The position numbers and the translations under genes are program-made. From Cellulomonas triticagri (GTDB lineage Bacteria > Actinomycetota > Actinomycetes > Actinomycetales > Cellulomonadaceae), in contig NZ_RFFI01000011.1 in NCBI RefSeq assembly GCF_003696205.1, positions 1 through 50,619 of the forward strand: a stretch of DNA of 50,619 nucleotides, in the 5' to 3' direction. The notes under the pieces are model-generated. The model did not search any database, was not told the origin of the DNA, and saw only the letters and a list, made by a program, of their open reading frames with translations. The first letter of the stretch is position 1. Each line of letters starts with the position of its first letter. Positions 4,970 to 22,800 of this stretch are shown piece by piece.

Positions 4970-4975
4970 CGGGGC

Positions 4976-6217: not shown

Positions 6218-6273
6218 CCGCGTCCGGGCGCACGGGGGCTGGACACCCGGCGCGGCACCGCCGCCGCGCTCGG

Positions 6274-6279
6274 TAGCCT
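6274..6279 (+). promoter_or_regulatory. -10 element TAGCCT, leaderless promoter of serB
   Basis: TAGCCT, 6 nt, then the GTG at 6286. No SD. Confidence 0.5.
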
Positions 6280-6285
6280 GCCGTC

Positions 6286-6933: not shown

Positions 6934-6954
6934 CGCGGGGGCTTCCCCACCCCA

Positions 6955-7023
6955 CGAGGTCGGGGGAACACGTCGAGGTCGGCGGAACGGATCCACCGAC
7001 CTCGTCGGCGACCACCGACCTCG
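6955..7023. terminator. nested inverted repeats between serB and the SixA-like gene
   Basis: The 12-mer CGAGGTCGGNGG occurs at 6955-6966 and 6974-6985, and its reverse complement at 6993-7004 and 7012-7023. The spacing is 19 bp on each side. The inner pair folds with a loop of about 13 nt, and the outer pair can extend or replace it. Placement between two convergent stop codons suggests a bidirectional terminator. There is no U tract. Confidence 0.6.
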
Positions 7024-7034
7024 CCGGGAACGGC

Positions 7035-7562: not shown

Positions 7563-7575
7563 CAGCGTCCCACGA

Positions 7576-8343
7576 CTACTGGCCCATCGCGTGCACGCCG
7601 CCGTCGACGTGCACCATCTCCCCCGTCGTCTTGGGGAACCAGTCGGACAGCAGCGCCGCGACCGCGCGGGCCGTGGGCTCCGGGTCGTGCACGTCCCAGC
7701 CGAGGGGCGCGCGGCCGTCCCAGCCGCCCTCCATCGACTCGAAGCCCGGGATGGACTTCGCGGCGGTGGTGCGGATCGGGCCGGCGGACACCACGTTGAC
7801 GCGGATGCCCTGCGGGCCGAGGTCGCGGGCCAGGTAGCGGGAGGTCGACTCGAAGGCGGCCTTGGCGACGCCCATCCAGTCGTAGACCGGCCACGCGAAC
7901 CGCGCGTCGAAGGTCAGGCCGACGATGGAGCCGCCGCCGGTGAGCAGCGGCTGCGTGGCGGTGGCCAGCGACTTCAGGGAGAACGCGGACACCTCGAGCG
8001 CGGTGGCGACGTCGGCCCACTCGGCGGCGAGGAAGTTGCCGCCCATGACGGACTGCGGCGCGAAGCCGATGGAGTGCACGACCCCGTCCAGGTGGTCCAC
8101 GTGCTCGCGGACGCGCTCCGGCAGGGCCGCCAGGTCCTCGGCGTCCGTGACGTCGAGCTGCACGACCGGCGCCTCCTTCGGCAGCCGCCGGGCGATGGCC
8201 TGCGTGAGGCGGAACTGGCGCCCGAACGAGCTCAGCACGACCTCGGCGCCCTCCTCCTGCGCGAGGCGCGCGACGTGGAAGGCGATGGAGCCGTCGGTGA
8301 GGACGCCGGTGACGAGGAGCTTCTTGCCGTCGAGGAGACCCAT
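7576..8343 (-). CDS. fabI: enoyl-[acyl-carrier-protein] reductase (NADH)
   Basis: 255 aa. It is an atypical short-chain dehydrogenase that reduces the trans-2-enoyl thioester in the last step of each fatty-acid elongation cycle (FabI/InhA family, target of isoniazid- and triclosan-type inhibitors in relatives). The N-terminus GKKLLVTGVLTDGSIAFHVA has the FabI/InhA-type nucleotide-binding loop. The active site is VYDWMGVAKAA, with Y154 and K161 in the family's Tyr-x6-Lys arrangement. Substrate-loop residues are SAGPIRTTAAKSIPGF. The ATG at 8343 gives MGLLDGKKLLVTG. It lies 41 bp behind fabG in the order seen in mycobacteria (mabA-inhA). Confidence 0.95.
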   Translation of the reverse strand: MGLLDGKKLLVTGVLTDGSIAFHVARLAQEEGAEVVLSSFGRQFRLTQAIARRLPKEAPVVQLDVTDAEDLAALPERVREHVDHLDGVVHSIGFAPQSVMGGNFLAAEWADVATALEVSAFSLKSLATATQPLLTGGGSIVGLTFDARFAWPVYDWMGVAKAAFESTSRYLARDLGPQGIRVNVVSAGPIRTTAAKSIPGFESMEGGWDGRAPLGWDVHDPEPTARAVAALLSDWFPKTTGEMVHVDGGVHAMGQ

Positions 8344-8384
8344 GGTCGATCCGATCTGTGCGAGGTGGTGCGGGAGGTGGGAGG

Positions 8385-9648
<1,264 letters not shown>

Positions 9649-9652
<4 letters not shown>

Positions 9653-9939
9653 CGACGCCCACCCCCGACGCCGTCGGCGACCTCGACTGCAGCGCGCGCG
9701 GCTGCCGCGCCGAGGCGGCCTGGGGCGTGCTCTGGAACAACCCGCGCCTGCACACCCCCGTGCGGCGCAAGGTCTGGCTGGCGTGCGACGAGCACCGCGA
9801 GCACCTGGAGGAGTACCTGCGGGCGCGGGCGTTCTGGAAGGAGACCGTGCCGGTCGCCGACCTGCCGCGCCTCGACCTCGGCGAGCGCCCGGCCGGGCTG
9901 CCGGGGACCGGGCTGCCGGGGCTGCCCGGGCTGCGATGA
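9649..9939 (+). CDS. small conserved Cys/His protein upstream of SURF1
   Basis: 96 aa, soluble. It holds a possible metal site: C14-x4-C19 (CSARGC) and later C46-x2-H49-x2-H52 (ACDEHREH). The middle reads WGVLWNNPRLHTPVRRKVWL, a conserved signature of this small actinobacterial family. Relatives are sometimes labelled acetone carboxylase, which the size and motifs do not support. The C-terminus is a Leu-Pro-Gly repeat (GLPGTGLPGLPGLR). It overlaps the upstream and downstream genes by 4 bp each, so it is tightly coupled with SURF1. A role in cytochrome oxidase assembly is positional inference only. Confidence 0.8.
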
Positions 9940-10805
9940 CCGACGACGCGCCCCGCCCCCGGGTGACCCTGCGCGGCAACCCGGCGCTGCGCCGCGCCGT
10001 GGGCCTGGTGGTCCTCGCGGTCGTGGTCTCCACCGCCTGCGTCTTCCTGGGCCGGTGGCAGTGGCACCGGCATGTCGCCCGCGACGCGGCGATCCGGCTG
10101 GTGGAGCAGAACTACTCCGCCGACCCCGTGCCGCTGGCGGACCTGCTGCCGGGCGCGGGCGCCGACCTGGACCCGGGCGACGTGTGGCGGCAGGCCACCA
10201 TCACCGGGACCTACGACGCCGACGCGACGGTGCTGCTGCGCAACCGCCCCGTGAACAGCGAGCCGGGCTTCCACGTGCTGACCCCGCTGGTGCTCGCGGA
10301 CGGCTCGGCGCTGGTGGTCGACCGCGGCTGGGTGGCGTGGGACGACGACGCCAGCGGCGAGGTCTCCCTGCCCGCTCCCCCGTCGGGCGAGGTCGACGTC
10401 ACCGTGCACCTGCGGCCCGACGAGCCGGCCAGCGAGCGTTCGGCCCCCGCGGGCCAGGTGCAGGCCATCCACGTGGACCAGGTGCTCGCCGCGGGCGGCA
10501 CCGACGTCGCGTCGTTCGGGGGCTACGGCGCGGTGGTCGAGGAGCGGCCCGCGGCGGACGTGCGGCTGGGGTCGCTGCCCGCGCCGTCCACCGACCCGGG
10601 GTCGCACCTGTCGTACGCGTTCCAGTGGTGGACGTTCGCGGTGGGCTCGCTCGGCGCGTTCGGGTGGCTGGCGCGGCGGGAGCTGCTGGAGGCCGACCAG
10701 CCCGACGGCGAGCCCGGCGCGGTCCCGACGGCGCAGCGCTCGCGCCGCCGGCGCACCAGCGACGAGGACACCGAGGACGCCCTGATCGACGCCCAGCTGC
10801 CCTGA
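9936..10805 (+). CDS. SURF1 family protein (cytochrome c oxidase assembly)
   Basis: 289 aa. SURF1 proteins help insert heme a into subunit I of the aa3 oxidase. An N-terminal helix (about residues 18-36, VGLVVLAVVVSTACVFLG) is followed by the family motif GRWQWHRH and a large extracytoplasmic domain with LLRNRPVNSEPGFHVLTPL and VDRGWVAW. A second helix near residue 230 follows the family phrase SYAFQWWTFA. The tail is cytoplasmic and highly charged (RRRRTSDEDTEDA). The ATG overlaps the upstream stop by 4 bp. It is convergent with the PucR-type regulator, only 16 bp away. Confidence 0.93.
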   Translation: MTDDAPRPRVTLRGNPALRRAVGLVVLAVVVSTACVFLGRWQWHRHVARDAAIRLVEQNYSADPVPLADLLPGAGADLDPGDVWRQATITGTYDADATVLLRNRPVNSEPGFHVLTPLVLADGSALVVDRGWVAWDDDASGEVSLPAPPSGEVDVTVHLRPDEPASERSAPAGQVQAIHVDQVLAAGGTDVASFGGYGAVVEERPAADVRLGSLPAPSTDPGSHLSYAFQWWTFAVGSLGAFGWLARRELLEADQPDGEPGAVPTAQRSRRRRTSDEDTEDALIDAQLP

Positions 10806-10821
10806 GCGCGCCGCCCGGGAG

Positions 10822-12327
10822 TCAGCCCCCGGCGACGAGCCGGAGCCGGCAGGCGAGCTCCAGGGCGAACCGGGTGTCCGGGTCGTCGAGGTCGAGGGCG
10901 AGGGTCCGCTCGATCCGCCGGACCCGGTAGTTCACCGCGTTCGGGTGCAGCGTCAGCAGGGCGGCCGCGCGCGCGAGGGAGTTGCGGGTGCTGAGGTAGG
11001 CCAGCAGGGTGCGCACGGCCGTGTCCGCGGGCTCCGCGCCGAGCGCGTCCAGCGGCGCGAGCAGGTCGTCCAGCAGGCTGCGGCTGAGCGGCGAGGCGTG
11101 GAAGTCGAGCAGCACCCGGCGCAGCCCGGTCACGTCGCTGACCTCGACCGCGCCGTACCGGCCCGCGGCCACGGCGGACTCGGCGGCGACCCGCGCCTCG
11201 CTGGCCGACTGCCGCAGCCCGGCGGCGCCGCCCTGCGGGGTGCCGAGGCCGACGGTGACCGTCCACCCGTCGCCCGCGACGGCGCGGGCGTGCTCCGCCA
11301 GTCGCTCGGCGACGTCGCGCAGCCGCCGCTGGTGGTCGGGCGCCCCGGTCTCCTCGGAGGCGACCACCACGAGGTCGTCGTGGAACGTCGCGACGTGCCA
11401 CGTCTCGGCGCGCGCGTCCACGAGCTGCAGGGCGCGCAGCTCCATGGTGGCGGCGAGCGCCGCGGGCGGGCGGCGCAGCGGGTCAGGGCGGTAGCGCGGG
11501 ACCAGCCACGCGACGGTGTGCGACAGCGCGACGGGCAGGCCCGCGCGCGCGGCGTCGACCCCGATCGCGTCGATGCGCGCGGTGTCGGCGAGCAGCAGCT
11601 CGACCACGAGGTCCGCGCGCGAGCGCACGGGGCCGAACCGGTCCTGGGTCTCGCGGGCGAGCGCCCGGGACAGCATGGACGCGACGACGGGCAGCGCGAG
11701 CGCGACGGCGGGGTCCTGCCGGTCGGCGACCAGGCGGCCGAGCGGGACCTCGCCGATGCAGACCGCGTCCGGGTCGGTCCACCGCACGCCCGGCACCTCG
11801 TCGAGACGCAGCACCGCGCCGAGCGCGGTGCCCGCGGTGCCGAGCACGGCGGTCCGGGCGTCCGACGGGTCGGCGGCCAGCGCCTCGGCGACGGCGGCCA
11901 CGGCGTGCTCGGCGCGGGCGAGCGACCCGGCGGCACCCCGGCCGACCAGCCGGTCGACCAGCACGGCGAGCTCGGCGGGCTCCGCGCGCGCCGTGAGCAC
12001 CGGCAGCGCACCGCCCGCCGCGAGGGTGCGCGCCGTCTCCGGCAGCGCCTCCACGCCCGGCAGCACGAGGGCCGCGACCGACCCGGCCAGGGCCCGGCGC
12101 ACGGCGATATCGATCTGGTAGGCCCGCGCGGGTGCGCCGGTGCCCGTGGTGGCGACGACGAGGTGCCCGGGCTCCGCGCGGTCGAGCTCGTCCAGCCGGA
12201 GCGTGCGCACCCCGAGCACCGGCACGCCGACCGGGTCGCCGGTCAGCACCCGGACCCCGAAGCGGTCCGCCTGGGCGACGACCTCGTCCAGCGCAACATG
12301 CTCGACACGCACCTGTGGTGGTGGCAC
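10822..12327 (-). CDS. PucR/CdaR family transcriptional regulator
   Basis: 501 aa. The N-terminal part (from about residue 5, VRVEHVALDEVVAQADRFGV) resembles the PucR purine-catabolism regulator domain. The middle is a GGDEF-like degenerate region. The C-terminus carries the PucR helix-turn-helix, ARAAALLTLHPNAVNYRVRRI. PucR proteins respond to purine or related N-compounds and act near their target genes. I prefer GTG 12327 (MPPPQVRVEH), which has GGGGTG upstream and leaves room for a promoter and operator; ATG 12360 would add 11 residues and overlap the inverted repeat at 12348-12374. It is divergent from the DUF917 operon and is its likely regulator. Confidence 0.87.
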   Translation of the reverse strand: MPPPQVRVEHVALDEVVAQADRFGVRVLTGDPVGVPVLGVRTLRLDELDRAEPGHLVVATTGTGAPARAYQIDIAVRRALAGSVAALVLPGVEALPETARTLAAGGALPVLTARAEPAELAVLVDRLVGRGAAGSLARAEHAVAAVAEALAADPSDARTAVLGTAGTALGAVLRLDEVPGVRWTDPDAVCIGEVPLGRLVADRQDPAVALALPVVASMLSRALARETQDRFGPVRSRADLVVELLLADTARIDAIGVDAARAGLPVALSHTVAWLVPRYRPDPLRRPPAALAATMELRALQLVDARAETWHVATFHDDLVVVASEETGAPDHQRRLRDVAERLAEHARAVAGDGWTVTVGLGTPQGGAAGLRQSASEARVAAESAVAAGRYGAVEVSDVTGLRRVLLDFHASPLSRSLLDDLLAPLDALGAEPADTAVRTLLAYLSTRNSLARAAALLTLHPNAVNYRVRRIERTLALDLDDPDTRFALELACRLRLVAGG

Positions 12328-12347
12328 AACCGCACCCCGTTCTGTGG

Positions 12348-12374
12348 TCTGACGGCACATTGTCGCACGTCAGA
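12348..12374. promoter_or_regulatory. inverted repeat TCTGACG-N13-CGTCAGA, candidate PucR-type operator
   Basis: Perfect 7-bp arms at 12348-12354 and 12368-12374 are separated by 13 bp, centre to centre two helical turns. The site covers the -35 region (TTGTCG, 12360-12365) of the DUF917 promoter, so a bound regulator could block or steer polymerase there. Confidence 0.55.
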
Positions 12375-12383
12375 GCCGGTTCG

Positions 12384-12389
12384 TACGGT
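12384..12389 (+). promoter_or_regulatory. -10 element TACGGT of the DUF917 operon
   Basis: TACGGT sits 6 nt before the ATG at 12396 and 18 bp behind a TTGTCG -35-like hexamer at 12360-12365. No SD precedes the ATG, so a leaderless mRNA is likely. Confidence 0.6.
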
Positions 12390-12395
12390 CGGTCC

Positions 12396-13547
12396 ATGCC
12401 CCGCAGCACCGCCCTCGCGGCAGCCACCACGCCCCCGCCACCCGAGCCGTCCCCGCCGCCCCTGCGGCCCCTGACCGCCGTCGGCCCCGACGACGTCGCC
12501 CCGCTCGCGGCGGGCGCCGCGGTGTTCGGCACCGGCGGCGGCGGGGCGGTGCACACCGTGCGGCTGTCCGTCGGCACCGCCGTCGCCGAGCACGGCCCGG
12601 TCCCGCTGGTGCGGGTCGCCGACCTCACCGCCGACGACGTCGTCATCAACCTGTCGGCGATGGGCGCCCCGTCCGTCGGCATCGAGATGCTCGGCGCCGC
12701 GGCGCAGGCCCGCACGCTGGTGCACGAGGTGGAGCAGCTCGTCGGGCGGCGCGTCACGACGCTGATGGCGGCGGAGATCGGCGGCAGCAACGGCGTCGCG
12801 CCCGTCGGCTGGGCGGCCCAGCTCGGCCTGCAGGTGCTGGACGCCGACGGCATGGGCCGCGCGTTCCCGCAGGCCACGATGATCGCGATGAACGTCGCCG
12901 GGCTGGCGAGCGAGTTCGCGGTGATGGCCGACGTCGTCGGGAACGTCACCGTGCTGCGCACCCGGGACATCGCCTGGCTGGAGCGGCACGCCCGCGCGTT
13001 CACCGTGGCCGCCGGGGGCATCGCGCTCGGCGCGCACTACCTGCTGGACCACCGCACCGCTCCGGGCGCCGTCATCGAGGGCACCGTCAGCCGGGCCGTC
13101 GAGGTGGGGCGCCGGCTGCTGGGCGCCGCGGACCCCGTGGCCGAGGTCGCCGACGAGCTCGGCGCGGCCGTGCTGGTCGCGGGCAAGGTCATCGACATCG
13201 ACCGGGTCACCGAGGGCGGGTTCACCCGCGGCTCGGTGACCGTGCAGGGCGTCGGCCCCGACCGCGGGCGGCTGCTGCGGGTCGAGATCCAGAACGAGAA
13301 CCTCGTCGTCGTCGAGGACGGCGAGGTGCTGGTCAGCGTGCCCGACCTCGTCACGGTGGTGGACTCCGAGACGGGCGAGGCGATCTCGACCGAGATGCTG
13401 CGGTTCGGCCAGCGGGTCAGCGTGCTGGCCTGGGCGTGCGACCCGCTGTGGCGCACCCCGCGCGGCATCGAGCTCGCGGGGCCCCGCGCCTTCGGGTACG
13501 ACCTCGACTACGTGCCGTTCGACGGCACCGCGGCGGTGGGGGCGTGA
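12396..13547 (+). CDS. DUF917 family protein (S-methyl thiohydantoin desulfurase-like domain)
   Basis: 383 aa. After a Pro-rich leader the DUF917 core begins near residue 28 (LTAVGPDDVAPLAAGAAVFGTGGGG). Family hallmarks seen are LSAMGAPSVGIEML, AAEIGGSNG, DADGMGRAFPQ and, late, VEIQNENLVV. As I recall, Pfam renamed this family after an S-methyl-thiohydantoin desulfurase; many members sit beside hydantoinase-A-like genes, as here. It probably acts in the cytoplasm on a five-membered N-heterocycle taken up by the downstream transporter; the substrate is not known. It is the first gene of an eight-gene operon and overlaps the next start (GTGA). Confidence 0.85.
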   Translation: MPRSTALAAATTPPPPEPSPPPLRPLTAVGPDDVAPLAAGAAVFGTGGGGAVHTVRLSVGTAVAEHGPVPLVRVADLTADDVVINLSAMGAPSVGIEMLGAAAQARTLVHEVEQLVGRRVTTLMAAEIGGSNGVAPVGWAAQLGLQVLDADGMGRAFPQATMIAMNVAGLASEFAVMADVVGNVTVLRTRDIAWLERHARAFTVAAGGIALGAHYLLDHRTAPGAVIEGTVSRAVEVGRRLLGAADPVAEVADELGAAVLVAGKVIDIDRVTEGGFTRGSVTVQGVGPDRGRLLRVEIQNENLVVVEDGEVLVSVPDLVTVVDSETGEAISTEMLRFGQRVSVLAWACDPLWRTPRGIELAGPRAFGYDLDYVPFDGTAAVGA

Positions 13548-15157
13548 GCGGCCGGGACCTGTCCGTCGGCATCGACGTCGGCGGGACCAACACCGACGCG
13601 GTCGTGCTCGACGCCGACGGCACCGTGCTGGCCTGGACCAAGCAGGCGACCACCGAGGACGTGACCGGTGGGGTGCGTGCGGCGCTGGCCGCCGTGCTGC
13701 GCGACCTCGGGCCCGCCCGCGACGCCGTGTCCCGGGTCATGCTCGGCACGACGCACGCCACCAACGCGATCGTCCGCCGCCGGGACCTGGGCCGGGTCGC
13801 GGTGCTGCGGCTCGGCGCCCCGGCGTCCACCGACTTCCCGTCCCTGGTGGGCTGGCCGTCCGACCTGCGGGACACCGTGCTGGCCGGGGCGCTGCTCGCG
13901 GGCGGCGGGCACCTCGTGGACGGCTACCCGCTGTCGCCGCTGGACCTGGACGGCGTCCGCCGGTTCCTCGACGGCCTCGACCGCACCGGCGGCGGGTACG
14001 ACGCCGTCGCGGTGTGCGGCATCTTCAGCCCGTCGTTCCCGGAGCAGGAGCTCGAGGTGGCGGCGCTGGTCGCCGAGCACGCCGGGGCGGACCTGCCGGT
14101 GTCCCTCAGCCACGAGGTCGGCGAGCTCGGGCTGCTGGAGCGGGAGAACGCGACGGTGCTGAACGCCGCGCTGCACCGCGTCGCCGGGGACGTCACCCGG
14201 GCGCTGCTGGTCGCGGTCGCCGACGAGGGCCTGGACGCCGCGACGTTCTTCGCCCAGAACGACGGCACCCTGATGGCGGTCGAGTACGCCGCCCGGTACC
14301 CGGTGCTGACCATCGGCTCCGGCCCGGCGAACTCGATCCGCGGCGCCGCCCGGCTGTCCGGCGCGGACGCCGCCGTCGTGGTGGACGTCGGCGGCACCAC
14401 CAGCGACCTCGGCGTGCTGGTCGACCGGTTCCCCCGCGAGTCCACCCTGCCGCGCGAGATCGGCGGGGTGCGCACCAACTTCCGGATGCCCGACGTGCTG
14501 AGCGTCGCGCTCGGCGGCGGCACGGTGGTCGACCTGGACCGCCGGGTGCCGCTCACCGACTCGGTGGGCCACCGCATCCGCACCGAGGGGCTGCTGTTCG
14601 GCGGCGGCACGCCGACGCTCACCGACGCCGCCGCGGCGGTCCGCCCCGGCACCGTCCCCGGCCACGACCTGCCCGGGCTGCCCCGCGGCACGCGCGACGC
14701 CCTCGCCGCCGCGCTGGCCGTGGCGCACGAGCGGGTCGAGGCCGCCGTCGAGCGGATGTCGCTCGGGCGCACCGACCTGCCGCTCGTCGTGGTCGGCGGC
14801 GGTGGGTTCCTCGTGCCGGACGCCGTCGCGGGTGCGGGCGAGGTGCTGCGCCCCGGGCGCGGCGACGTCGCCAACGCCGTGGGCGCGGCCATCGCCCTCG
14901 CCGGGGGCCGCGCCGACCAGCTCTGCGACCACGCCGACCGGGACGCGGCCATCGCCGAGGCCAGCCGGCAGGCCGTCGAGCGCGCGATCCAGGCCGGTGC
15001 CGACCCGCACGCCGTCGAGATCGTCGACGTGCTGGAGACGCCCGTGTCCTACGCGACCCGCCCCACCGTCCGGGTCGCGGTCAAGGCCGCCGGCCCGCTC
15101 GCCCGGCTCTCCCCGACCGGCACCACCAGCCCCCGCACCTCCCTGCTCCCCTCCTGA
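13544..15157 (+). CDS. hydantoinase/oxoprolinase family ATPase (HyuA-like)
   Basis: 537 aa. The N-terminus GIDVGGTNTDAVVLD and the later VVVDVGGTTSDLGVL are the two phosphate loops of the hydantoinase A/oxoprolinase (ASKHA-type) fold. LGTTHATNAIV and ERENATVLNAAL are family phrases, and VVVGGGGFLVPD near residue 420 closes the nucleotide site. Relatives open hydantoin, oxoproline or related lactam rings with ATP. It is shorter than classical HyuA (about 680 aa), and there is no HyuB gene, as is usual for the DUF917-linked subgroup. The GTG start overlaps the DUF917 stop codon, so the two products may form a complex. Confidence 0.88.
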   Translation: MSGRDLSVGIDVGGTNTDAVVLDADGTVLAWTKQATTEDVTGGVRAALAAVLRDLGPARDAVSRVMLGTTHATNAIVRRRDLGRVAVLRLGAPASTDFPSLVGWPSDLRDTVLAGALLAGGGHLVDGYPLSPLDLDGVRRFLDGLDRTGGGYDAVAVCGIFSPSFPEQELEVAALVAEHAGADLPVSLSHEVGELGLLERENATVLNAALHRVAGDVTRALLVAVADEGLDAATFFAQNDGTLMAVEYAARYPVLTIGSGPANSIRGAARLSGADAAVVVDVGGTTSDLGVLVDRFPRESTLPREIGGVRTNFRMPDVLSVALGGGTVVDLDRRVPLTDSVGHRIRTEGLLFGGGTPTLTDAAAAVRPGTVPGHDLPGLPRGTRDALAAALAVAHERVEAAVERMSLGRTDLPLVVVGGGGFLVPDAVAGAGEVLRPGRGDVANAVGAAIALAGGRADQLCDHADRDAAIAEASRQAVERAIQAGADPHAVEIVDVLETPVSYATRPTVRVAVKAAGPLARLSPTGTTSPRTSLLPS

Positions 15158-15173
15158 GACGAAGGGCCACACC

Positions 15174-16763
15174 ATGACTCGCAGACCCCGGGGCCTCGCC
15201 CCCGCCACCGCGCTGGCGGCCGTCGCCGCGCTGACCCTGACCGCCTGCGGCTCGGGCGGCGCCGGTCAGGACGGCGCCGCGACCGGCGGCACGCCGGTGT
15301 CCGGCGGCACATTCACCCTGGCGGTGAACGACGACCCGGGCAGCCTGTCCCCGCTGACCGGCGTCTCGCTGGTGCAGCGCGGCCTGGTCCCGTTCGGCTA
15401 CGAGTCGCTGGTGTACACCACCGAGGACGGCGAGACGATCCCGTGGCTGGCCGAGAGCTGGGAGGAGTCCCCCACCTCGATCACGTACACGCTCAAGGAG
15501 GGCATCACCTGCGCGGACGGCACGGAGTTCACCGCCGAGACCGCCGCCGCGAACATCGCCTACCACGCGGACCCCGAGCACGGGACGTTCTGGTTCGGCT
15601 CCAACGTGACCGCCGACATGACCGCCACCGCCGACGGGCGGACGCTGACCATCGCGACGACGGCGACCAACCCGTTCCTGCTGCAGTCCACCGGGGCGGT
15701 CGAGATGGTCTGCCAGGCCGGGCTGGACGACCCGGAGACCCTGACCGACGCGACCAACGGCACCGCACTGTACGAGCTCGCCGACGCCACCGCGGGCGCC
15801 GACTACACGTACGCCAAGCGCGACGGGTACACCTGGGGCCCGGACGGCGTGACCAGCGAGACGGCGGGCCTGCCGGACGAGATCGTCGCCCGGGTGATCC
15901 GCGACGAGGCCACCGCGGCCAACCTCCTGCTGTCGGGCGAGCTCAACGCCGCGTCGGTGATCGGCGCCGACCGCGCCCGGGTGGACGCGGCCGGGCTGGA
16001 CTCCGTCGGCGTGCTCAACCCCATCGGGCAGATGCTGTTCAACGAGCGCCCGGACCGGCCGACCGCCGACGAGCGGGTGCGTCGGGCGCTGGCCCTCGCG
16101 CTGGACCGCGAGGCCGTGGGCGAGCTCGTCACCGACGGGCAGTACCTCGAGTCCGTGTCCCTGGTGAACAAGACGCCGCTGACCTGCGTGGCCGACGGCC
16201 CGCTGTGGGAGCTGCCGGAGACCGACCTGGACGCCGCGGGCGACCTGCTCGACGAGGCGGGCTACCCGGCCGGGGCCGACGGCGCCCGGGATCTCACCAT
16301 CCGGTTCATCTACGACGGCGGCACGCCCTCGCACGGGGCGGCGGCCGAGGAGGTGCAGGCGGAGTGGGACGCGCTCGGCATCACCACCGAGCTCGTCGCG
16401 GAGGACTCCGCCGGGTGGGCGGCCGACCTGTACCAGACCTACGACTGGGACACCGGCTTCGTGCAGCTCGCCCCGGGCAGCCCCGTCGTGCTCAGCCTGT
16501 TCTTCCTCGGCGCGCACAGCGAGGAGGGCGGCTACAACTTCATGGCCGTCGACAACCCGGAGTACGACGCCCTCGCCGAGCAGGCGCTCGTCGCCCCGGA
16601 CGCGGACACCGCCTGCGGGCTGTGGCTCGAGGCGGAGCGCGAGCTCATCGAGCGGGTCGACACGCTCCCGGTCGCGGACACCCTGTCGCCGACGTACCTC
16701 AACGGGGCGACGGTCGAGATGCCGGGCAGCATCATGCCGACGTCCGTGCGGATGCTGGGCTGA
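15174..16763 (+). CDS. ABC transporter substrate-binding lipoprotein (family 5, peptide/opine/nickel type)
   Basis: 529 aa. The signal peptide ends in the lipobox LTAC, with lipidated C25. The mature part is a family 5 solute-binding protein: GGTFTLAVNDDPGSLSPLTG, then LAESWEESPTSITYTLKEGI, and RALALALDREAVGELV in the hinge. The protein would sit on the outer face of the membrane and deliver ligand to the permeases that follow. The ATG at 15174 has GAAGG 8 nt upstream. The 16-bp gap after the hydantoinase gene keeps it in the operon. The ligand is more likely a modified amino-acid or heterocycle than a peptide, given the enzymes. Confidence 0.92.
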   Translation: MTRRPRGLAPATALAAVAALTLTACGSGGAGQDGAATGGTPVSGGTFTLAVNDDPGSLSPLTGVSLVQRGLVPFGYESLVYTTEDGETIPWLAESWEESPTSITYTLKEGITCADGTEFTAETAAANIAYHADPEHGTFWFGSNVTADMTATADGRTLTIATTATNPFLLQSTGAVEMVCQAGLDDPETLTDATNGTALYELADATAGADYTYAKRDGYTWGPDGVTSETAGLPDEIVARVIRDEATAANLLLSGELNAASVIGADRARVDAAGLDSVGVLNPIGQMLFNERPDRPTADERVRRALALALDREAVGELVTDGQYLESVSLVNKTPLTCVADGPLWELPETDLDAAGDLLDEAGYPAGADGARDLTIRFIYDGGTPSHGAAAEEVQAEWDALGITTELVAEDSAGWAADLYQTYDWDTGFVQLAPGSPVVLSLFFLGAHSEEGGYNFMAVDNPEYDALAEQALVAPDADTACGLWLEAERELIERVDTLPVADTLSPTYLNGATVEMPGSIMPTSVRMLG

Positions 16764-16766
16764 CGC

Positions 16767-17795
16767 GTGACGCTCCCGTCCCCCGCCCTCGAGGCGACCA
16801 CCCCGGCCGGTCCCCCCGCGGGACCGGCCGGGCGTGCCGGGCTGGCGGCGCACCCCCGGCTGGCGTTCGTCCTCGCGCGCCTCGCCCGGGCGCTGGTCTC
16901 GCTGGTCCTCGTGCTACTCGCCGCGTTCTTCCTCGTGCACCTCGTGCCGGGCGACCCCGTGCGGGCCGCGCTCGGCCCGACCGTCTCGCCCGAGACGGTC
17001 GAGGCGCTGCGCCAGCAGCTCGGGCTGGACCGCCCGCTCGGCGCGCAGCTGGGGCACTACGTCACCGGGCTGGTCACCGGCGACCTCGGCACCTCGGTCA
17101 CCTCGCAGCGCCCGGTCGCGACGATCCTCCTCGAACGGCTGCCCGCGACGCTGACCCTCGCCGGGCTGTCGTTCCTGCTCGCCGCGGTCGGGGCGTTCCC
17201 GGTCGGTGTCGCCACGGCGGTCTCCGCCCGCGGCGGGCGGCGGCGCGGGCTCGACCTGGTCGTGTCCGGGGTGCTCGGCGTGCTGGTGGCGGTGCCGGGC
17301 TTCCTGCTCGCGGTGCTGCTGGTCTCGGTGTTCGGGGTCACCCTCGGCGCGCTGCCGCCCGCCGGCTGGGGCACGCCCGCGCACGCCGTGCTGCCGGTCG
17401 TCGCCCTGGCCGCCGGGCCGCTCGCGTACCTGGCGCGGATCGTGCACGTGGAGATGCTGCGCGTGCTGGACGAGCCGTACCTCACCACGGCCCGCAGCAA
17501 GCGGCTGCCCGCCGCGACGCTGTACCTGCGGCACGCGCTGCCGAACATCGTCGGCGCGGCGCTCACCGCGGGCGGCGTCGTCCTGGTCGGGCTGGTCGCG
17601 GGCACGGTGCTGGTCGAGACGGTGTTCGTCATCCCCGGCATCGGCTCGACCATCGTGTCCTCGATCAGCGCCAAGGACTACCCGCTGATCCAGGGCGTCG
17701 TCCTCGTCTACGCCGTGCTGGTGCTGGTCGCGAACCTGCTCGTGGACCTCGCCCTCGCCGTGCTCGACCCCCGATCCACCGTCGCGGAGGCCTGA
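16767..17795 (+). CDS. ABC transporter permease (DppB/OppB type)
   Basis: 342 aa. About six membrane helices are visible, starting with ARALVSLVLVLLAAFFLVHL and the family motif VPGDPVRAALGP. The N-terminal 25 residues are Pro/Gly/Ala-rich. The EAA-like loop that contacts the ATPase follows LARIVHVEMLRVLDEPYL, with LYLRHALPNI. The GTG at 16767 lies 3 bp after the upstream stop. It would pair with the permease half of the next gene product to form the membrane channel. Confidence 0.92.
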   Translation: MTLPSPALEATTPAGPPAGPAGRAGLAAHPRLAFVLARLARALVSLVLVLLAAFFLVHLVPGDPVRAALGPTVSPETVEALRQQLGLDRPLGAQLGHYVTGLVTGDLGTSVTSQRPVATILLERLPATLTLAGLSFLLAAVGAFPVGVATAVSARGGRRRGLDLVVSGVLGVLVAVPGFLLAVLLVSVFGVTLGALPPAGWGTPAHAVLPVVALAAGPLAYLARIVHVEMLRVLDEPYLTTARSKRLPAATLYLRHALPNIVGAALTAGGVVLVGLVAGTVLVETVFVIPGIGSTIVSSISAKDYPLIQGVVLVYAVLVLVANLLVDLALAVLDPRSTVAEA

Positions 17796-17796
17796 C

Positions 17797-19635
17797 GTGC
17801 CCGGAACCCGCCCCCGTCCCGCGCTGCTGCGCACCCTCGCGACGCCCCGCGGCGCGGCCGTCGCCGCCGGGCTCCTGCTGCTCGCGCTCGTCACCGCGTT
17901 CGGCCCGGCCCTGCTCGGCGACGCCGCGGACACCCGCGACCTCGCCGCCCGGCAGCAGGGCGCGAGCCTCGCGCACCCGTTCGGCACCGACGACCTGGGC
18001 CGCGACCTGCTCGCCCGCGTGCTGGTCGCCACCCGGCTGTCGGTGCTGCTGGCCCTCGGCGCCACCGCGATCTCCGTGGTCGGCGGCGCGGTCGTCGGCA
18101 TCGTCGCGGCGGTGCTGCCCGCGGCGCTGCGCCGCGCCGTCAACGCGCTGGTCGACATCCTGCTGTCGTTCCCGTGGCTGCTGCTCGCCCTGTTCTTCTC
18201 GGTGATCTGGGGCACCACCGCCACCGGCGCGATGCTGGCCGTCGGGTTCGCGGGCGTGCCCGTGTTCGCCCGCCTGGTCAGCACCCTCGCGGCGTCGGTC
18301 GCCGGGACGGAGTACGTGCACGCCGCACGGATGCTCGGCAGCGCGCCGCTGCGCACCGCCCGCGTGCACCTGCTGCCCAACGTGCTGCCGCCGCTGCTGG
18401 TGAACGCCGCCGCGCACGCCTCGGTGTCGCTGCTGTCGTTCGCGGCGCTGTCGTTCCTCGGCCTCGGGGTCCAGGCGCCCGCCTACGACTGGGGCCGGCT
18501 GCTGAACGAGGGCGCCCGGCGCATCTACGTCGACCCGATGGCCGCCGTCGGCCCCGGGCTCGCGATCGTGCTCACCGGCGTGCTGCTGGCCCTGCTCGGC
18601 GAGGTGCTGAGCGAGGGTGGTCGCCGCCGCGGCCGGGCCGGCGGGCGACCGCCGCGCGCGGGCACCGGCGTAGCGCCGGCCGTGGCCGACGACGCCCCCG
18701 TGGTGGACGTGCGGGACCTGCGCGTCGCGTTCGCCGCCGAGGACGGCTCGCTGGTGGAGCGGGTGCACGGCGTGGACCTGCGGGTCGCGCCCCGCGAGGT
18801 CGTCGGCCTGGTCGGCGAGTCGGGGTCCGGCAAGTCCGTCACCGCGATGGCCGTCGCCGGGCTGCTCGGGCCGGACGCCCGGGTGCGCGCCGAGCGGCTG
18901 GTGTTCCGGGGCATCGACATGACCCGGCCGCCGTCGCCCGCCGAGCGCACCCGCCTCGGGCTGGAGCAGACGATGATCTTCCAGGACCCGCTGAGCTCGC
19001 TGAACCCGTCGCTCACCGTCGGGCGCCAGCTCACCGAGGTGACCGAGGTGCACGCCCGCACCCTGCGCGCCGCGGCCCGGGCCCGGGCGCTCGCCGCGCT
19101 GGAGCGGGTCCGCGTGCCCGAGGCCGCGCGCCGGCTGCGCCAGCTGCCGCACGAGCTGTCCGGCGGCATGCGGCAGCGCGTGATGATCGCGACCGGCCTC
19201 ATGGTGACGCCGCGGCTGATCGTCGCCGACGAGCCGACCACTGCCCTCGACGTCACGGTGCAGCGGCAGGTGCTCGGCGCGCTGCGCGGGGCGCAGCGGG
19301 AGACGGGCGCGGCGATCCTCCTGATCTCGCACGACATCGCCCTGGTCAGCGGGTTCTGCGACCGGGTCGTGGTGATGCGCTCGGGGCGGGTCGTCGAGGA
19401 GCTCGACCCGCGGCGCTGGCAGGACGCGACGCACCCGTACACCCGCGGCCTCATCGCCTGCGTGCCCGACATGACCACCGACCGCACCCGGCCGCTGCCG
19501 GTCGTGGAGCCGGAGGCGCCCGACGACGCCGCGCCGGCCCTCGATCCGGGCGCGACCGACCGGTCCGGCCGGACGGGTCCGCCCGCCCGACCCGGCCGAC
19601 CTGGCCGCCCGACCCGCAAGGGAGTCCCCGCATGA
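17797..19635 (+). CDS. ABC transporter permease-ATPase fusion (DppC-DppD)
   Basis: 612 aa. Residues 1 to about 285 are a DppC-type permease (HPFGTDDLGRDLLARVL, EYVHAARMLGSAPLRTARV, SFLGLGVQAPAYDWGRLL). A short Arg/Gly/Pro linker follows. From about residue 305 there is a DppD-type ATPase with Walker A GESGSGKS (340-347), Q-loop FQDPLSSLNP, signature LSGGMRQRV, Walker B LIVADEPTTALD and the HPYTRGL tail. No stop codon or frameshift separates the halves, so one polypeptide is made. The C-terminal 50 residues are low complexity. Such fusions occur in actinobacterial Opp/Dpp importers. Confidence 0.92.
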   Translation: MPGTRPRPALLRTLATPRGAAVAAGLLLLALVTAFGPALLGDAADTRDLAARQQGASLAHPFGTDDLGRDLLARVLVATRLSVLLALGATAISVVGGAVVGIVAAVLPAALRRAVNALVDILLSFPWLLLALFFSVIWGTTATGAMLAVGFAGVPVFARLVSTLAASVAGTEYVHAARMLGSAPLRTARVHLLPNVLPPLLVNAAAHASVSLLSFAALSFLGLGVQAPAYDWGRLLNEGARRIYVDPMAAVGPGLAIVLTGVLLALLGEVLSEGGRRRGRAGGRPPRAGTGVAPAVADDAPVVDVRDLRVAFAAEDGSLVERVHGVDLRVAPREVVGLVGESGSGKSVTAMAVAGLLGPDARVRAERLVFRGIDMTRPPSPAERTRLGLEQTMIFQDPLSSLNPSLTVGRQLTEVTEVHARTLRAAARARALAALERVRVPEAARRLRQLPHELSGGMRQRVMIATGLMVTPRLIVADEPTTALDVTVQRQVLGALRGAQRETGAAILLISHDIALVSGFCDRVVVMRSGRVVEELDPRRWQDATHPYTRGLIACVPDMTTDRTRPLPVVEPEAPDDAAPALDPGATDRSGRTGPPARPGRPGRPTRKGVPA

Positions 19636-20420
19636 GCGAGCTCGAGCTGCGCGGCGTCACCGTGCGCTACGGCCACGGCGCCCGCGCCCAGACCGCCGTG
19701 GACGCCGTCGACCTGACCGTGCGCCCCGGCACGACGCACGGCCTGGTCGGCGAGTCCGGCTCCGGCAAGTCCACCCTGGCGCGCGCGGCCGTCGGCCTCG
19801 TCCGCCCGACCGCCGGGCAGGTCTTCCTCGGTCGGGTCGACGTCACCGGACCGTCCCGGTACGCCCGGCGGACCCGGCGGCGGGTCCAGATGGTGTTCCA
19901 GGACCCGATGAGTGCCCTGGACCCGCGGCTGCCCGTCGGGCTGTCGGTCGCGGAGGGCCTGCTCGCCACGGGGCGACGGACCTCGCGGGCCGACCGGGAG
20001 GCGCGCGTGACCGCGCTGCTCGACCGGGTCCAGATCGACCCGCGCCGCGCGGGCGACCTGCCCGGGGCGTTCTCCGGCGGCCAGCGCCAGCGGATCACCA
20101 TCGCCCGCGCGCTCGCCGCCGAGCCCGAGGTGCTGGTCGCGGACGAGATCACCTCGGCTCTCGACGTCTCCGTGCAGGGGGTCGTGCTCAACCTGATCCG
20201 TGACCTGCAGGCGGACCTCGCGCTCACCGTGCTGTTCATCTCGCACAACCTCGCGGTGGTCCGGTACGTCAGCGACGACGTCAGCGTCATGCGCGCCGGG
20301 CGCGTCGTGGAGCACGGCCCGGCCGAGCGGGTGCTCGCCGACCCGGCCGACCCGTACACCCGCGAGCTGCTGCGCTCGATCCCCGTGATGGGGCAGCCCC
20401 TGGTCCTGGCGGACGCGTGA
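19632..20420 (+). CDS. ABC transporter ATP-binding protein (DppF/OppF type)
   Basis: 262 aa. The second ATPase of the importer has Walker A GESGSGKSTL, Q-loop FQDPMSALDPR, signature FSGGQRQRITIARAL and Walker B VLVADEITSALDVS, with Ile where Pro is usual. The switch histidine is in FISHNLAVVRYV, and the family tail is DPYTRELLRSIP. It would form a heterodimer with the ATPase half of the fused protein. The ATG overlaps the preceding stop by 4 bp, and its own stop overlaps the next GTG by 4 bp. Confidence 0.92.
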   Translation: MSELELRGVTVRYGHGARAQTAVDAVDLTVRPGTTHGLVGESGSGKSTLARAAVGLVRPTAGQVFLGRVDVTGPSRYARRTRRRVQMVFQDPMSALDPRLPVGLSVAEGLLATGRRTSRADREARVTALLDRVQIDPRRAGDLPGAFSGGQRQRITIARALAAEPEVLVADEITSALDVSVQGVVLNLIRDLQADLALTVLFISHNLAVVRYVSDDVSVMRAGRVVEHGPAERVLADPADPYTRELLRSIPVMGQPLVLADA

Positions 20421-21958
20421 GGACCGTCCCGACCCCGCGCGGCGCCACCGCTCCCCCGGTGCTGCTGCGCCGCGCACGCCTGCTCGCGTCGACCGGCACC
20501 CGGGACGTGCTCCTCTCGGGCGGCCGGGTGGCCGCCGTCGTGCCCGGCGGCACCCACCCGGACGTCCCGGGGGTGCCCGCCGTCGACCTCGCGGGGCGCT
20601 GGCTCGCACCCGGGCTGCACGACGCACACGCGCACCTGACCCAGTGGGTCGAGCTCGGGCAGCGGCTCGACCTCACGCCCGCCACCACGGCCGCCGGGAC
20701 GCTCGACCTCGTGCGGGCCGCGCTGCCGTCCTGGCCCGGCGAGGTCCTGGTCGGGCACGGCTTCCGCGACGCCCTGTGGCCGGACGCCCCGACGCGGGAG
20801 GCGATCGACGCGGCCGCGGGAGGGCGGCCCGTGGTGCTGGTCAGCCAGGACCTGCACTGCGGCTGGCTGAGCGCAGCGGCCGCCGCGCTGGTCGACGTCG
20901 ACCGCGGCCCGGACGGGGTGCTGCGCGAGGGCCCGTGGATCCACGGCCTCGACGCGCTGCGCCGCCGCACCCGCCCGTCGGACGCCGCCTTCCGCGCCGC
21001 GGGGCTGGCCGCCGCCCGCCGGGGTGTCGTCGGCGTCGTGGACCTGGAGAACGCCGACAACGCGACCGAGTGGCCGCGCCGCGTCGCCGCCGGGGCGGAC
21101 CTGCTGCGCGTCGAGGCGTCCGTCTGGCCCGACCGGCTGGACGAGGTGATCGACCGGGGCCTGCGGTCCGGGGACGCCCTCGACCCGGCGGGGCTGGTCA
21201 CGATGGGCCCCCTGAAGGTCGTGGTCGACGGGTCGCTGAACACCCGGACCGCCTGGTGCTGGGACCCCTACCCCGGGCTCGCGCCCGACCACCCGCACCC
21301 CTGCGGGCTGGAGGCCGTCGCGCCGGACGCGCTCGCCGGGCTGCTCACCCGGGCGGCCGCGCACGGCATCCGCGCCACCGTGCACGCGATCGGCGACCGC
21401 GCCGCCTCGGACGTGCTCGACACCTTCGAGCGCCTCGGCCTGCCCGGGACGATCGAGCACGCCCAGCTGGTCCGCGAGGCCGACCTCGCCCGGTTCGCGC
21501 GGCTCGGCCTGGTGGCGAGCGTGCAGCCGCAGCACGCGCTGGACGACCGGGACGTCACCGACCGGCACTGGGCGGGCCGCACCGGGCGGGCCTTCGCGTA
21601 CGGGTCGCTGCACCGGGCGGGGGTCCCGCTGCGGCTCGGCTCCGACGCACCGGTCTCCCCGCTGGACCCGTGGCACGCCGTCGCGGCGGCGGTGCACCGG
21701 TCCGACGACGACCGCCCCGCCTGGCACCCGGAGCAGCACCTGCCCGTCGCGGTCGCCCTCGCCGCGTCCGTGCGCGGGCCGCTCACCGTGGGCGCCGGGG
21801 ACGTCGCCGACCTCGCGGTGCTGGACGCCGACCCGCTCGCCGCACCGGCCGCGGTGCTGCGCACGATGCCCGTCGCGGCCACCGCCGTCGGCGGCCGCTG
21901 GACCTGGAGCGCCCTGGACGACCTGCCCGGGCCCGACGCGACGCAGGGAGCACGCTGA
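20417..21958 (+). CDS. metal-dependent amidohydrolase (Amidohydro_3, YtcJ-like)
   Basis: 513 aa. The small beta-sandwich with LLSGGRVAAVVPGG leads to the metal motif APGLHDAHAHL. Further ligands are seen in ATVHAIGDRAASD and GTIEHAQL, and GSDAPVSPLDPWHAV gives the final aspartate. A conserved lysine region occurs in MGPLKVVVDGSLNTRTAW, where the Lys may be the carbamylated bridge. YtcJ-like enzymes hydrolyse C-N bonds of diverse amides and rings, but few have known substrates. Its place behind the importer suggests it opens or deacylates the imported compound. The GTG start is coupled to the previous gene by overlap. Confidence 0.88.
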   Translation: MRTVPTPRGATAPPVLLRRARLLASTGTRDVLLSGGRVAAVVPGGTHPDVPGVPAVDLAGRWLAPGLHDAHAHLTQWVELGQRLDLTPATTAAGTLDLVRAALPSWPGEVLVGHGFRDALWPDAPTREAIDAAAGGRPVVLVSQDLHCGWLSAAAAALVDVDRGPDGVLREGPWIHGLDALRRRTRPSDAAFRAAGLAAARRGVVGVVDLENADNATEWPRRVAAGADLLRVEASVWPDRLDEVIDRGLRSGDALDPAGLVTMGPLKVVVDGSLNTRTAWCWDPYPGLAPDHPHPCGLEAVAPDALAGLLTRAAAHGIRATVHAIGDRAASDVLDTFERLGLPGTIEHAQLVREADLARFARLGLVASVQPQHALDDRDVTDRHWAGRTGRAFAYGSLHRAGVPLRLGSDAPVSPLDPWHAVAAAVHRSDDDRPAWHPEQHLPVAVALAASVRGPLTVGAGDVADLAVLDADPLAAPAAVLRTMPVAATAVGGRWTWSALDDLPGPDATQGAR

Positions 21959-22800
21959 TGCCGCTGACCACGACGGACGACGTCCGCATCCACTTCGAGG
22001 TCGTCGGACCCGACGACGGCGAGCCGCTGGTGCTGGTCGGCGGGGGCGGCACCCAGCTGGTCGAGTGGCGCGAACCGTTCTGCGACCTGCTGGTCGAGCG
22101 GGGGTTCCGGGTCATCCGGTTCGACCACCGCGACACCGGCCTGTCCCAGCGGTTCGGCGCCCCCGAGGACGTGGACGGCGGCTACGCCGTGCAGGACATG
22201 GCGCTGGACGTGCTGCGGGTGCTCGACACGCTCGGGCTGGCGTCGGCGCACGTCGCCGGGCACTCCATGGGCGCGATCATGGGCCAGTACCTCGCCCTGG
22301 ACCACCCCGCGCGGGTGCGCAGCCTCGCGGTGCTGTCCGGCATCCCCGGCCTGGACCCGGCCTACCTGCGCGGGCCGCAGTACGCGGCCACCGCGATGGT
22401 GCCGCAGCGGCCGCTGCCCCGGGACGTCGCGGTCGAGCAGTTCGTCGCCACCCAGCGGGCCATGCACGCGACGGCGTTCGCGTTCGACGAGGACGCCGAG
22501 CGCGCGCACGCCGCCCTGCAGATCGACCGGGGCTACGAGCCCAACGGGTTCTGGCGGCACATCAGCGCGCTGCTGCGCGCGGACGACCGGCTCCCGCGGC
22601 TCGGCTCGATCCGGGTCCCGGTGACCGTCGTGCACGGCGCGGAGGACCCGGGGCTGGCCCCGCTGGCCGCCGAGCTCACCGCGGCGGCCGTCCCGGGCGC
22701 GGAGCTGCACCTGGTCCCGGGGATGGGCCACCGCGTCGAGCAGGCGCTCTGGCCGCTGTACGTCGACCTGATCGCGACCAACGCCCGCCGCACCGCCTGA
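21958..22800 (+). CDS. alpha/beta hydrolase
   Basis: 280 aa, alpha/beta-hydrolase fold. The oxyanion region is LVLVGGGGTQLVEW, the nucleophile elbow is AGHSMGAIM with S103, and D230 (GAEDPGL) and H258 (MGHRVEQ) complete the triad. FDHRDTGLS is typical of the esterase/haloperoxidase-like subgroup. The substrate is unknown; an ester or amide product of the pathway is likely. The ATG overlaps the amidohydrolase stop by 1 bp (TGATG). It is the last gene of the operon and is convergent with the ABC-F gene after 46 bp, in which I see no clear terminator hairpin. Confidence 0.88.
   Translation: MPLTTTDDVRIHFEVVGPDDGEPLVLVGGGGTQLVEWREPFCDLLVERGFRVIRFDHRDTGLSQRFGAPEDVDGGYAVQDMALDVLRVLDTLGLASAHVAGHSMGAIMGQYLALDHPARVRSLAVLSGIPGLDPAYLRGPQYAATAMVPQRPLPRDVAVEQFVATQRAMHATAFAFDEDAERAHAALQIDRGYEPNGFWRHISALLRADDRLPRLGSIRVPVTVVHGAEDPGLAPLAAELTAAAVPGAELHLVPGMGHRVEQALWPLYVDLIATNARRTA

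What the first reader, a model, noticed from the sequence alone, without database searches (positions are those of the whole stretch)
10822..22800. PucR-controlled eight-gene uptake and hydrolysis operon around a DUF917/HyuA-like pair, substrate unknown
Seen: one uninterrupted operon of DUF917, hydantoinase-A-like ATPase, family 5 binding lipoprotein, permease, permease-ATPase fusion, ATPase, YtcJ-like amidohydrolase and alpha/beta hydrolase, with 16 bp or less between genes or with overlaps, and a divergent PucR-type regulator. Known: DUF917 has been tied to S-methyl-thiohydantoin desulfurisation, HyuA-like proteins open lactam or hydantoin rings, and PucR regulators serve N-compound catabolism. 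Inference: the cluster imports a hydantoin-, thiohydantoin- or other ring-containing compound and opens it in several steps. No HyuB, allantoinase or ergothionase is present, so it is not a standard purine, hydantoin or ergothioneine route. I know of no described pathway with this combination.
Basis: partly seen in the sequence, partly recalled or inferred. Interest (0 to 1): 0.7.

Follow-up and report, generated by a model that had tools for sequence, protein, structure and literature searches.

The report
Cyclic-amide uptake and ring-opening operon
An actinobacterium carries a conserved set of genes that looks built to import a ring-shaped amide and cut it open with ATP, and the company its relatives keep suggests, but does not prove, that the food is an iron-carrier molecule made by fungi.

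Summary
The eight-gene operon and divergent PucR regulator are real. DUF917 and a short HyuA-type ATPase form a near-invariant pair: HyuA lies beside DUF917 in 72 of 74 related loci (both misses are at contig ends) and in 14 of 14 annotated plasmid regions opened. All 21 DUF917 genes in a 246-genome phylum draw have such a HyuA within 2 kb. The window's genome has no HyuB match. DUF917 fails both desulfurase cut-offs by far. Inference: HyuA activates a cyclic amide and DUF917 hydrolyses it in HyuB's place.

Substrate clue: in the window's clade the operon repeatedly neighbours a mevalonate-degrading module (degradative HMG-CoA reductase, HMG-CoA lyase, CoA-transferase, hydratase) and ornithine cyclodeaminase. 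The reductase occurs in 23 of 31 clade genomes, within 35 kb of DUF917 in 14; it occurs in 3 of 16 outgroup genomes, none near. In Thermocatellispora YtcJ lies inside one same-strand run with that module. Mevalonate, ornithine and a diketopiperazine are the make-up of fungal coprogen-type siderophores. I propose the operon imports and dismantles these or close relatives. Against: the window's genome lacks the reductase and ornithine cyclodeaminase, and nothing was assayed.

The parts
10822..12360 (-). PucR/CdaR-type transcriptional regulator (HTH_30 + GGDEF_2), divergent; a later start at 12312 is possible
   Evidence: a PucR-like gene is present in 33 of 34 clade A loci, on the minus strand next to DUF917 in the gene strings
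12396..13547 (+). DUF917 (S-Me-THD_N + S-Me-THD_C) protein, proposed hydrolytic partner
   Evidence: only clear solved relative 2o3i
13544..15157 (+). short HyuA-like ATPase (537 aa), both ATP-phosphate motifs DxGGTxTD and DxGGT intact, no GxxPGP motif
15174..16763 (+). family 5 solute-binding lipoprotein
   Evidence: lipobox LTAC
16767..17795 (+). ABC permease (Dpp/Nik B type)
17797..19635 (+). ABC permease fused to ATPase (Dpp/Nik C + D type)
   Evidence: fusion kept in 30 of 34 clade A loci
19632..20420 (+). ABC ATPase (Dpp/Nik F type)
20417..21958 (+). YtcJ-like metal-dependent amidohydrolase; proposed N-acyl (hydroxamate) hydrolase
   Evidence: H71, H73, H323, D410 (numbered from 20417) conserved in at least 95% of 33 sequences; same clade as YtcJs inside or beside HMG-CoA reductase operons
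21958..22800 (+). alpha/beta hydrolase with Ser-Asp-His triad; proposed esterase
   Evidence: S104, D231, H259 (numbered from 21955) conserved in at least 95% of 27 sequences

Best explanation
The operon is the import and dismantling part of a catabolic route for a cyclic-amide compound built from N-acyl-(N-hydroxy)ornithine, most likely a diketopiperazine-type fungal hydroxamate siderophore (rhodotorulic acid, dimerumic acid or coprogen) or a piece of one. Proposed steps: the binding lipoprotein and ABC transporter import it; the alpha/beta hydrolase cuts the ester that joins the third unit of coprogens; HyuA uses ATP to activate a ring amide and DUF917 hydrolyses it, so the pair opens the diketopiperazine to a linear dipeptide; a dipeptidase (M20, encoded beside the operon in some relatives) splits it; YtcJ removes the acyl group from the (hydroxy)ornithine. 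In many relatives the released anhydromevalonate is then hydrated and oxidised through HMG-CoA to acetoacetate and acetyl-CoA, and ornithine is deaminated. Shown: gene content, conserved order, DUF917-HyuA pairing, intact ATP motifs, no HyuB match, and repeated linkage to mevalonate and ornithine genes in relatives. Inferred: every reaction, the substrate, and that the window's own operon acts on the same substrate class.
For: Pairing: HyuA within 1.5 kb of DUF917 in 72 of 74 loci, beside it in 14 of 14 annotated plasmid regions (a small gene lies between in the two Mesorhizobium records) and within 2 kb of all 21 DUF917 genes of 12 genomes; 7 of those 12 genomes, the window's among them, show no HyuB. 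ATP motifs D11 and D281 lie in columns conserved in at least 93% of 85 sequences and match the caprolactamase CapA motifs whose Asp11 and Asp295 matter for activity (PMC8453981 passages; alignment). Linkage: YtcJ 24/34, alpha/beta hydrolase 21/34, PaiB-like FMN protein 19/34 of clade A loci against 2, 0 and 3 of 40 others. Degradative HMG-CoA reductase in 23 of 31 clade A genomes, 14 within 35 kb of DUF917, against 3 of 16 others, none near. Ornithine cyclodeaminase over cut-off in 14 of 31, 7 within 15 kb, against 0 of 16. M. hydrothermale holds the proposed parts in one island. Thermocatellispora has SBP-permease-fusion-ATPase-regulator-HMGR-HMGL-CaiB-YtcJ-hydratase on one strand with gaps of -4 to 137. 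Phycicoccus has a second ornithine aminotransferase beside the CoA-transferase. Dimerumic acid is two anhydromevalonyl-hydroxyornithine units in a diketopiperazine ring (PMC8656255 passage); rhodotorulic acid is the N-acetyl form (PMC6503915 passage).
Against: The window's genome has no degradative HMG-CoA reductase and no ornithine cyclodeaminase match. The nearest relatives tested (Labedella, Rathayibacter) lack the reductase too, and so does Agreia, which has the cyclodeaminase 5 kb away. In 9 of 23 genomes the reductase is on another contig (7) or 251 kb and 1.8 Mb away (2). Eight of 34 clade A loci show no YtcJ within the stretch first fetched; three of these (L011, L018, L034) have one further out. 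An ornithine aminotransferase is no marker: 38 of 48 genomes have one over cut-off and only Phycicoccus has one in the island. A family 5 binding protein is not the usual ferric-siderophore binder (recalled). No iron gene was noticed to recur, but none was searched for. The mevalonate and ornithine genes could be separate modules gathered in a catabolic island. DUF917 has no conserved His and no HyuB-like match was found, so its hydrolase role is indirect; 5 of 12 DUF917 genomes also have HyuB.
Confidence: 0.4

Rival explanations
1. General cyclic-dipeptide (diketopiperazine) catabolism: the same import and ATP-dependent ring opening by HyuA plus DUF917, but on ordinary cyclic dipeptides from proteins or peptones, with peptidases finishing the job; the mevalonate genes belong to neighbours.
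For: Dipeptide-type importer; M19 or M20 peptidases beside DUF917-HyuA in Acidimicrobiia, Alloyangia and Shinella; DUF917 genes are enriched near cyclodipeptide-oxidase-like genes (PMC11055893 passages); diketopiperazine cleavage with unknown enzymes is reported for Microbacterium, Leifsonia, Rhizobium and Bacillus strains (PMC3852281 passages). Fits the window's genome, which lacks the mevalonate module.
Against: Does not explain why YtcJ and the operon travel with HMG-CoA reductase, HMG-CoA lyase and ornithine enzymes in clade A.
Confidence: 0.27
2. Hydantoin, dihydropyrimidine or thiohydantoin catabolism: DUF917 is a ring hydrolase or desulfurase and HyuA a hydantoinase subunit.
For: The DUF917 family includes named thiohydantoin desulfurases (NCBIfam); NCS1 cytosine-type permeases sit beside DUF917-HyuA in bacilli; PucR-type regulators.
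Against: Far below both desulfurase cut-offs, as are 10 other HyuA-linked DUF917s; clade A carries a peptide/nickel-type ABC importer instead; no carbamoylase domain in the operon and no HyuB in the genome.
Confidence: 0.15
3. A catabolic island that merely collects unrelated modules: the operon handles some lactam or imide, and the mevalonate and ornithine modules serve other food.
For: The modules are separable: the window, Labedella and Rathayibacter lack the reductase; 22 of 387 order-draw genomes without a clade-A-like DUF917 have the reductase over cut-off.
Against: 14 of 23 within 35 kb, where about 0.4 is expected by chance (the genomes are related, so this overstates it); YtcJ between CoA-transferase (9 bp) and hydratase (4 bp overlap) in Thermocatellispora; two unrelated ornithine enzymes in the islands.
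Confidence: 0.18

Closest known systems
Caprolactamase CapAB and other HyuA/HyuB ATP-dependent lactamases, hydantoinases and 5-oxoprolinases
   Same: HyuA-type ATPase with both phosphate-binding motifs; inferred ATP-driven opening of a ring amide
   Different: HyuA is short (537 aa against 696 for CapA), lacks the GxxPGP motif, and its near-constant partner is DUF917, for which no HyuB-like structural match was found and which has no conserved His
S-methyl thiohydantoin desulfurase and thiohydantoin desulfurase (DUF917 family)
   Same: Same family by model; their reaction, attack on a ring carbon, is recalled, no paper seen
   Different: Scores far below the family cut-offs and comes with HyuA, an ABC importer, YtcJ and an alpha/beta hydrolase
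Bacterial degradation of ferrichrome A and desferrioxamine B as carbon source
   Same: Intracellular hydrolysis of hydroxamate siderophores for carbon (PMC12364333 passage)
   Different: Those concern other siderophores; I found no paper giving these genes that role
Mevalonate catabolism through degradative (NAD) HMG-CoA reductase and HMG-CoA lyase
   Same: Both enzymes score over family cut-offs beside the operon in relatives
   Different: Here joined by a CoA-transferase and a hydratase, as a 2-unsaturated acid such as anhydromevalonate would need; the reductase is absent from the window's genome

Membership tests
Thiohydantoin / S-methyl thiohydantoin desulfurases | Score over NCBIfam equivalog cut-off (NF058529 440, NF058532 450) | tested here: not met
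   80.7 and 92.6 bits
S-Me-THD-like (DUF917) family | Both Pfam domains PF06032 and PF20906 over gathering score | tested here: met
   137 and 215.5 bits against 27
HyuA/HyuB ATP-dependent amidohydrolases | HyuA ATP-phosphate motifs DxGGTxTD and DxGGT | tested here: met
   Present in the window protein, conserved in an 85-sequence set
HyuA/HyuB ATP-dependent amidohydrolases | HyuB (PF02538) partner | tested here: not met
   No match in the whole genome
HyuA/HyuB ATP-dependent amidohydrolases | Partner subunit with a HyuB-like fold | tested here: inconclusive
   DUF917 model matches only 2o3i clearly; a missing match is no proof
HyuA/HyuB ATP-dependent amidohydrolases | ATP-dependent ring hydrolysis | not testable with these tools
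   Needs enzyme assay
Dipeptide/nickel-type ABC importers | SBP_bac_5, two BPD_transp_1 domains, two ABC_tran domains | tested here: met
   no NCBIfam subfamily cut-off reached for the binding protein
PucR-type regulators | C-terminal HTH_30 and GGDEF_2 domains | tested here: met
PucR-type regulators | N-terminal PucR domain PF07905 | tested here: not met
   Not reported at E 0.001
Coprogen-type siderophore catabolic island (proposed) | Degradative HMG-CoA reductase near the operon | tested here: not met
   None in the window's genome; met (within 35 kb) in 14 of 31 clade A genomes
Coprogen-type siderophore catabolic island (proposed) | Dedicated ornithine-degrading enzyme in the island | tested here: not met
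   No ornithine cyclodeaminase match in the window's genome; an ornithine aminotransferase over cut-off lies on another contig, C254
Cyclodipeptide-oxidase-like clusters | CDOA/CDOB pair beside DUF917 | not tested
   No model search made for PF00881 or PF19585

The most novel reading that the evidence does not exclude
DUF917 plus short HyuA is a second, HyuB-independent class of ATP-dependent cyclic-amide hydrolase that opens diketopiperazines, and clade A operons are the first identified bacterial genes for eating the diketopiperazine siderophores of fungi (rhodotorulic acid, dimerumic acid, coprogen) as carbon and nitrogen food.
Probability: 0.3. Interest if true: 0.86.

Novelty: new variant of a known kind. 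Interest (0 to 1): 0.7.

Why it matters
DUF917-HyuA pairs occur in bacteria and at least one haloarchaeon with no assigned reaction in the papers I could search. A pair that opens cyclic dipeptides would be a candidate for the enzymes that PMC3852281 says are unknown. If clade A operons dismantle fungal siderophores, plant and soil actinobacteria would take not just iron but carbon and nitrogen from fungi and would remove their iron carriers, a direct lever in bacterial-fungal competition. The M. hydrothermale island makes this testable gene by gene.
Full report
What is there. The window carries a tight eight-gene + strand operon at 12396-22800 with a divergent PucR-type regulator at 10822-12360. 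The gaps are -4, 16, 3, 1, -4, -4 and -1 bp. It is the only DUF917 gene found in the genome. Its closest listed database relatives are 85-90% identical, the nearest with an organism name from a Cellulomonas metagenome assembly. All 14 same-genus genomes in an order-level draw show no DUF917 match (in which four candidates per genome were scored), so the operon is patchy and was probably gained by transfer (inference).

Conserved core. Comparing the nine window proteins with them splits them into clade A (34 loci, DUF917 at least 66% identical: Microbacteriaceae, Pseudonocardia, Nocardiopsis, Thermocatellispora, Jiangella and others) and 40 more distant loci. In clade A the core recurs: PucR 33/34, HyuA 34/34, binding protein 34/34, fused permease-ATPase 30/34. 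YtcJ (24/34 at 45% identity or more) and the alpha/beta hydrolase (21/34 at 40% or more) recur but move about within about 10 kb. Among the 40 others these counts are 11, 36, 0, 0, 2 and 0. A PaiB-like FMN protein, not in the window, accompanies 19 of 34 against 3 of 40. In the window's own genome its relative lies on contig C248 beside a second YtcJ.

DUF917 and HyuA are a unit. HyuA lies within 1.5 kb of DUF917 in 72 of 74 loci; L049 is cut by its contig end and L069 has only a partial HyuA at its contig end. Of 129 plasmid records with a DUF917 match I opened 16 regions of my choice. Two carry no annotation; the other 14 all have a hydantoinase/oxoprolinase gene beside DUF917 (a small gene between in the two Mesorhizobium records), in Alphaproteobacteria, Bacilli, a haloarchaeon and a Streptomycetaceae. 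Transporters vary: NCS1 cytosine-type permease, Dpp-type ABC, other ABC, OPT. In a phylum draw of 246 genomes 12 have DUF917 (21 genes). The window's HyuA finds 16 strong relatives there (389 bits or more), every one next to a DUF917, and all 21 DUF917 genes have one within 2 kb; other HyuA-type hits score 67.1 bits or less. HyuB occurs in 121 of 246 genomes but not in the window's, nor in six other DUF917 genomes. Five DUF917 genomes do have HyuB as well.

Chemistry, inferred. HyuA keeps both ATP-phosphate motifs, conserved over 85 sequences; mutating the matching aspartates of caprolactamase CapA strongly cut product formation (PMC8453981 passages). It is short and lacks CapA's GxxPGP motif. 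DUF917 has invariant glycines and acidic residues but no histidine among its invariant or nearly invariant columns, and its model clearly resembles only 2o3i. The simplest reading is that HyuA activates a ring amide with ATP and DUF917 adds water, HyuB's job done by another protein. It scores far below both desulfurase cut-offs, as do ten other HyuA-linked DUF917s.

The substrate clue. Gene families that recur beside clade A loci and in none of the 40 others include degradative HMG-CoA reductase (435 bits against a cut-off of 260), a CoA-transferase, a FAS1-like hydratase, ornithine cyclodeaminase (539 against 350), an N-methyltryptophan-oxidase-like enzyme (296 against 257) and an M20 peptidase; each is in 4 to 10 of 34 within the first stretches. 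An HMG-CoA lyase (331 against 246) accompanies the reductase. I then searched 48 whole genomes (31 of the 34 clade A loci, 18 of the 40 others in 16 genomes, and the window's). HMG-CoA reductase over cut-off: 23 of 31 against 3 of 16, window none. On the same contig within 35 kb of DUF917: 14 of 23, at 4 to 33 kb; of the other nine, seven are on other contigs and two at 251 kb and 1.8 Mb; in the outgroup none is on the same contig. Ornithine cyclodeaminase over cut-off: 14 of 31 against 0 of 16, window none; seven within 15 kb. Fisher tests give p about 4e-4 and 8e-4, but the genomes are related, so these overstate the case. A separate order draw of 396 genomes (at least one, a Kineosporia, is shared with the loci) has the reductase over cut-off in 26; 9 genomes, the window's included, have a clade-A-like DUF917 (63% or more identical); 4 have both, two of these 10 and 14 kb apart, one 1.1 Mb apart, one on different contigs (p 0.0015).

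Islands. Extended stretches show in Microbacterium hydrothermale one island: alpha/beta hydrolase, a 723-residue gene of no assigned family, cupin, PaiB, ornithine cyclodeaminase, YtcJ, a ferredoxin-reductase/PNPOx-type pair, PucR<>DUF917, HyuA, binding protein, permeases, ATPase, M20 peptidase, GAF regulator, HMG-CoA reductase, HMG-CoA lyase, CoA-transferase, hydratase. In Thermocatellispora the run from binding protein to hydratase is on one strand with gaps of -4 to 137 bp, and YtcJ sits between CoA-transferase (9 bp) and hydratase (4 bp overlap); DUF917 and HyuA precede it on the same strand. The window's YtcJ groups with these (60% identical to the Thermocatellispora one). Phycicoccus, without the cyclodeaminase, has a second ornithine aminotransferase (442 bits against 378) beside the CoA-transferase. 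Such aminotransferases are otherwise common and not in the islands (38 of 48 genomes).

Reading. Mevalonate-type acid plus ornithine plus a ring amide is the recipe of coprogen-type siderophores. Coprogens and fusarinines are made of N5-anhydromevalonyl-N5-hydroxyornithine (PMC12278577 passages); dimerumic acid is two such units in a diketopiperazine ring (PMC8656255 passage); rhodotorulic acid is the N-acetyl form (PMC6503915 passages). The formulae in PMC12278577 (dimerumic acid C22H36N4O8; N-acetyl fusarinine C13H22N2O6) fit two units less two waters by my arithmetic. Each gene then has a task: ester cut (alpha/beta hydrolase), ring opening (HyuA + DUF917), dipeptide cut (M20), acyl removal (YtcJ), CoA transfer and hydration, HMG-CoA reductase and lyase, ornithine cyclodeaminase. 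The window and its nearest tested relatives lack the reductase; they may use the N-acetyl type, leave the acyl acid, or use another ring compound. I hold this reading at 0.4 and plain cyclic dipeptides at 0.27.

What is known. Diketopiperazine-cleaving Microbacterium, Leifsonia, Rhizobium and Bacillus strains are reported with the enzymes unknown (PMC3852281 passages). DUF917 is noted as enriched near cyclodipeptide-oxidase-like genes and uncharacterised (PMC11055893 passages). Siderophores as carbon source are reported for desferrioxamine B and ferrichrome A (PMC12364333 passages). PMC11800396 (passages) describes siderophore degradation by a marine Microbulbifer through proposed proteolysis, another route. 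Among the papers listed I saw none that names genes for coprogen-type degradation or a reaction for DUF917-HyuA; lists were capped and the library misses most subscription journals.

Noticed in passing
L101 (window genome contig C248, 38000-48000): A second YtcJ (about 53% identical to the window's) with a PaiB-like FMN protein, divergent from a lipoprotein that looks like another family 5 binding protein (not scanned), an M14 zinc carboxypeptidase and a permease: perhaps a second peptide-like uptake system.
   Followed up: partly
L100 (window genome contig C231, HyuA match at contig 18765-19739): A second HyuA of about 700 aa in a genome with no HyuB match; its partner is unclear.
   Followed up: no
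L111, Enterococcus raffinosus plasmid, 1-14960: Two cytosine permease-DUF917-HyuA sets with a PucR regulator between them stand directly before selenium genes (selD, yedF, selB, selA).
   Followed up: no
L087, Streptomycetaceae plasmid, 3931-12201: Cytosine permease, HyuA, DUF917, OsmC, cysteine synthase, second DUF917 and a PucR-type regulator: could be a sulfur-releasing thio-ring route.
   Followed up: no
L079, L082, L084: Two or three DUF917 paralogues share one HyuA (Aureimonas, Haloferax, Rhizobium), as if DUF917 formed mixed complexes; several clade A genomes also hold one to five further DUF917 genes.
   Followed up: no
L058, L061-L068, L070-L072 (Acidimicrobiia-type genomes and a Frankiales genome): DUF917-HyuA followed by M19 dipeptidase, PucR and a sugar-type ABC importer, in most also an FAD amine oxidase and an Asp/Glu/hydantoin racemase: a different import solution for the same pair.
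   Followed up: partly
window 7576-9119: Enoyl-ACP reductase-like and 3-oxoacyl-ACP reductase-like genes side by side (read from the translations only, no search).
   Followed up: no
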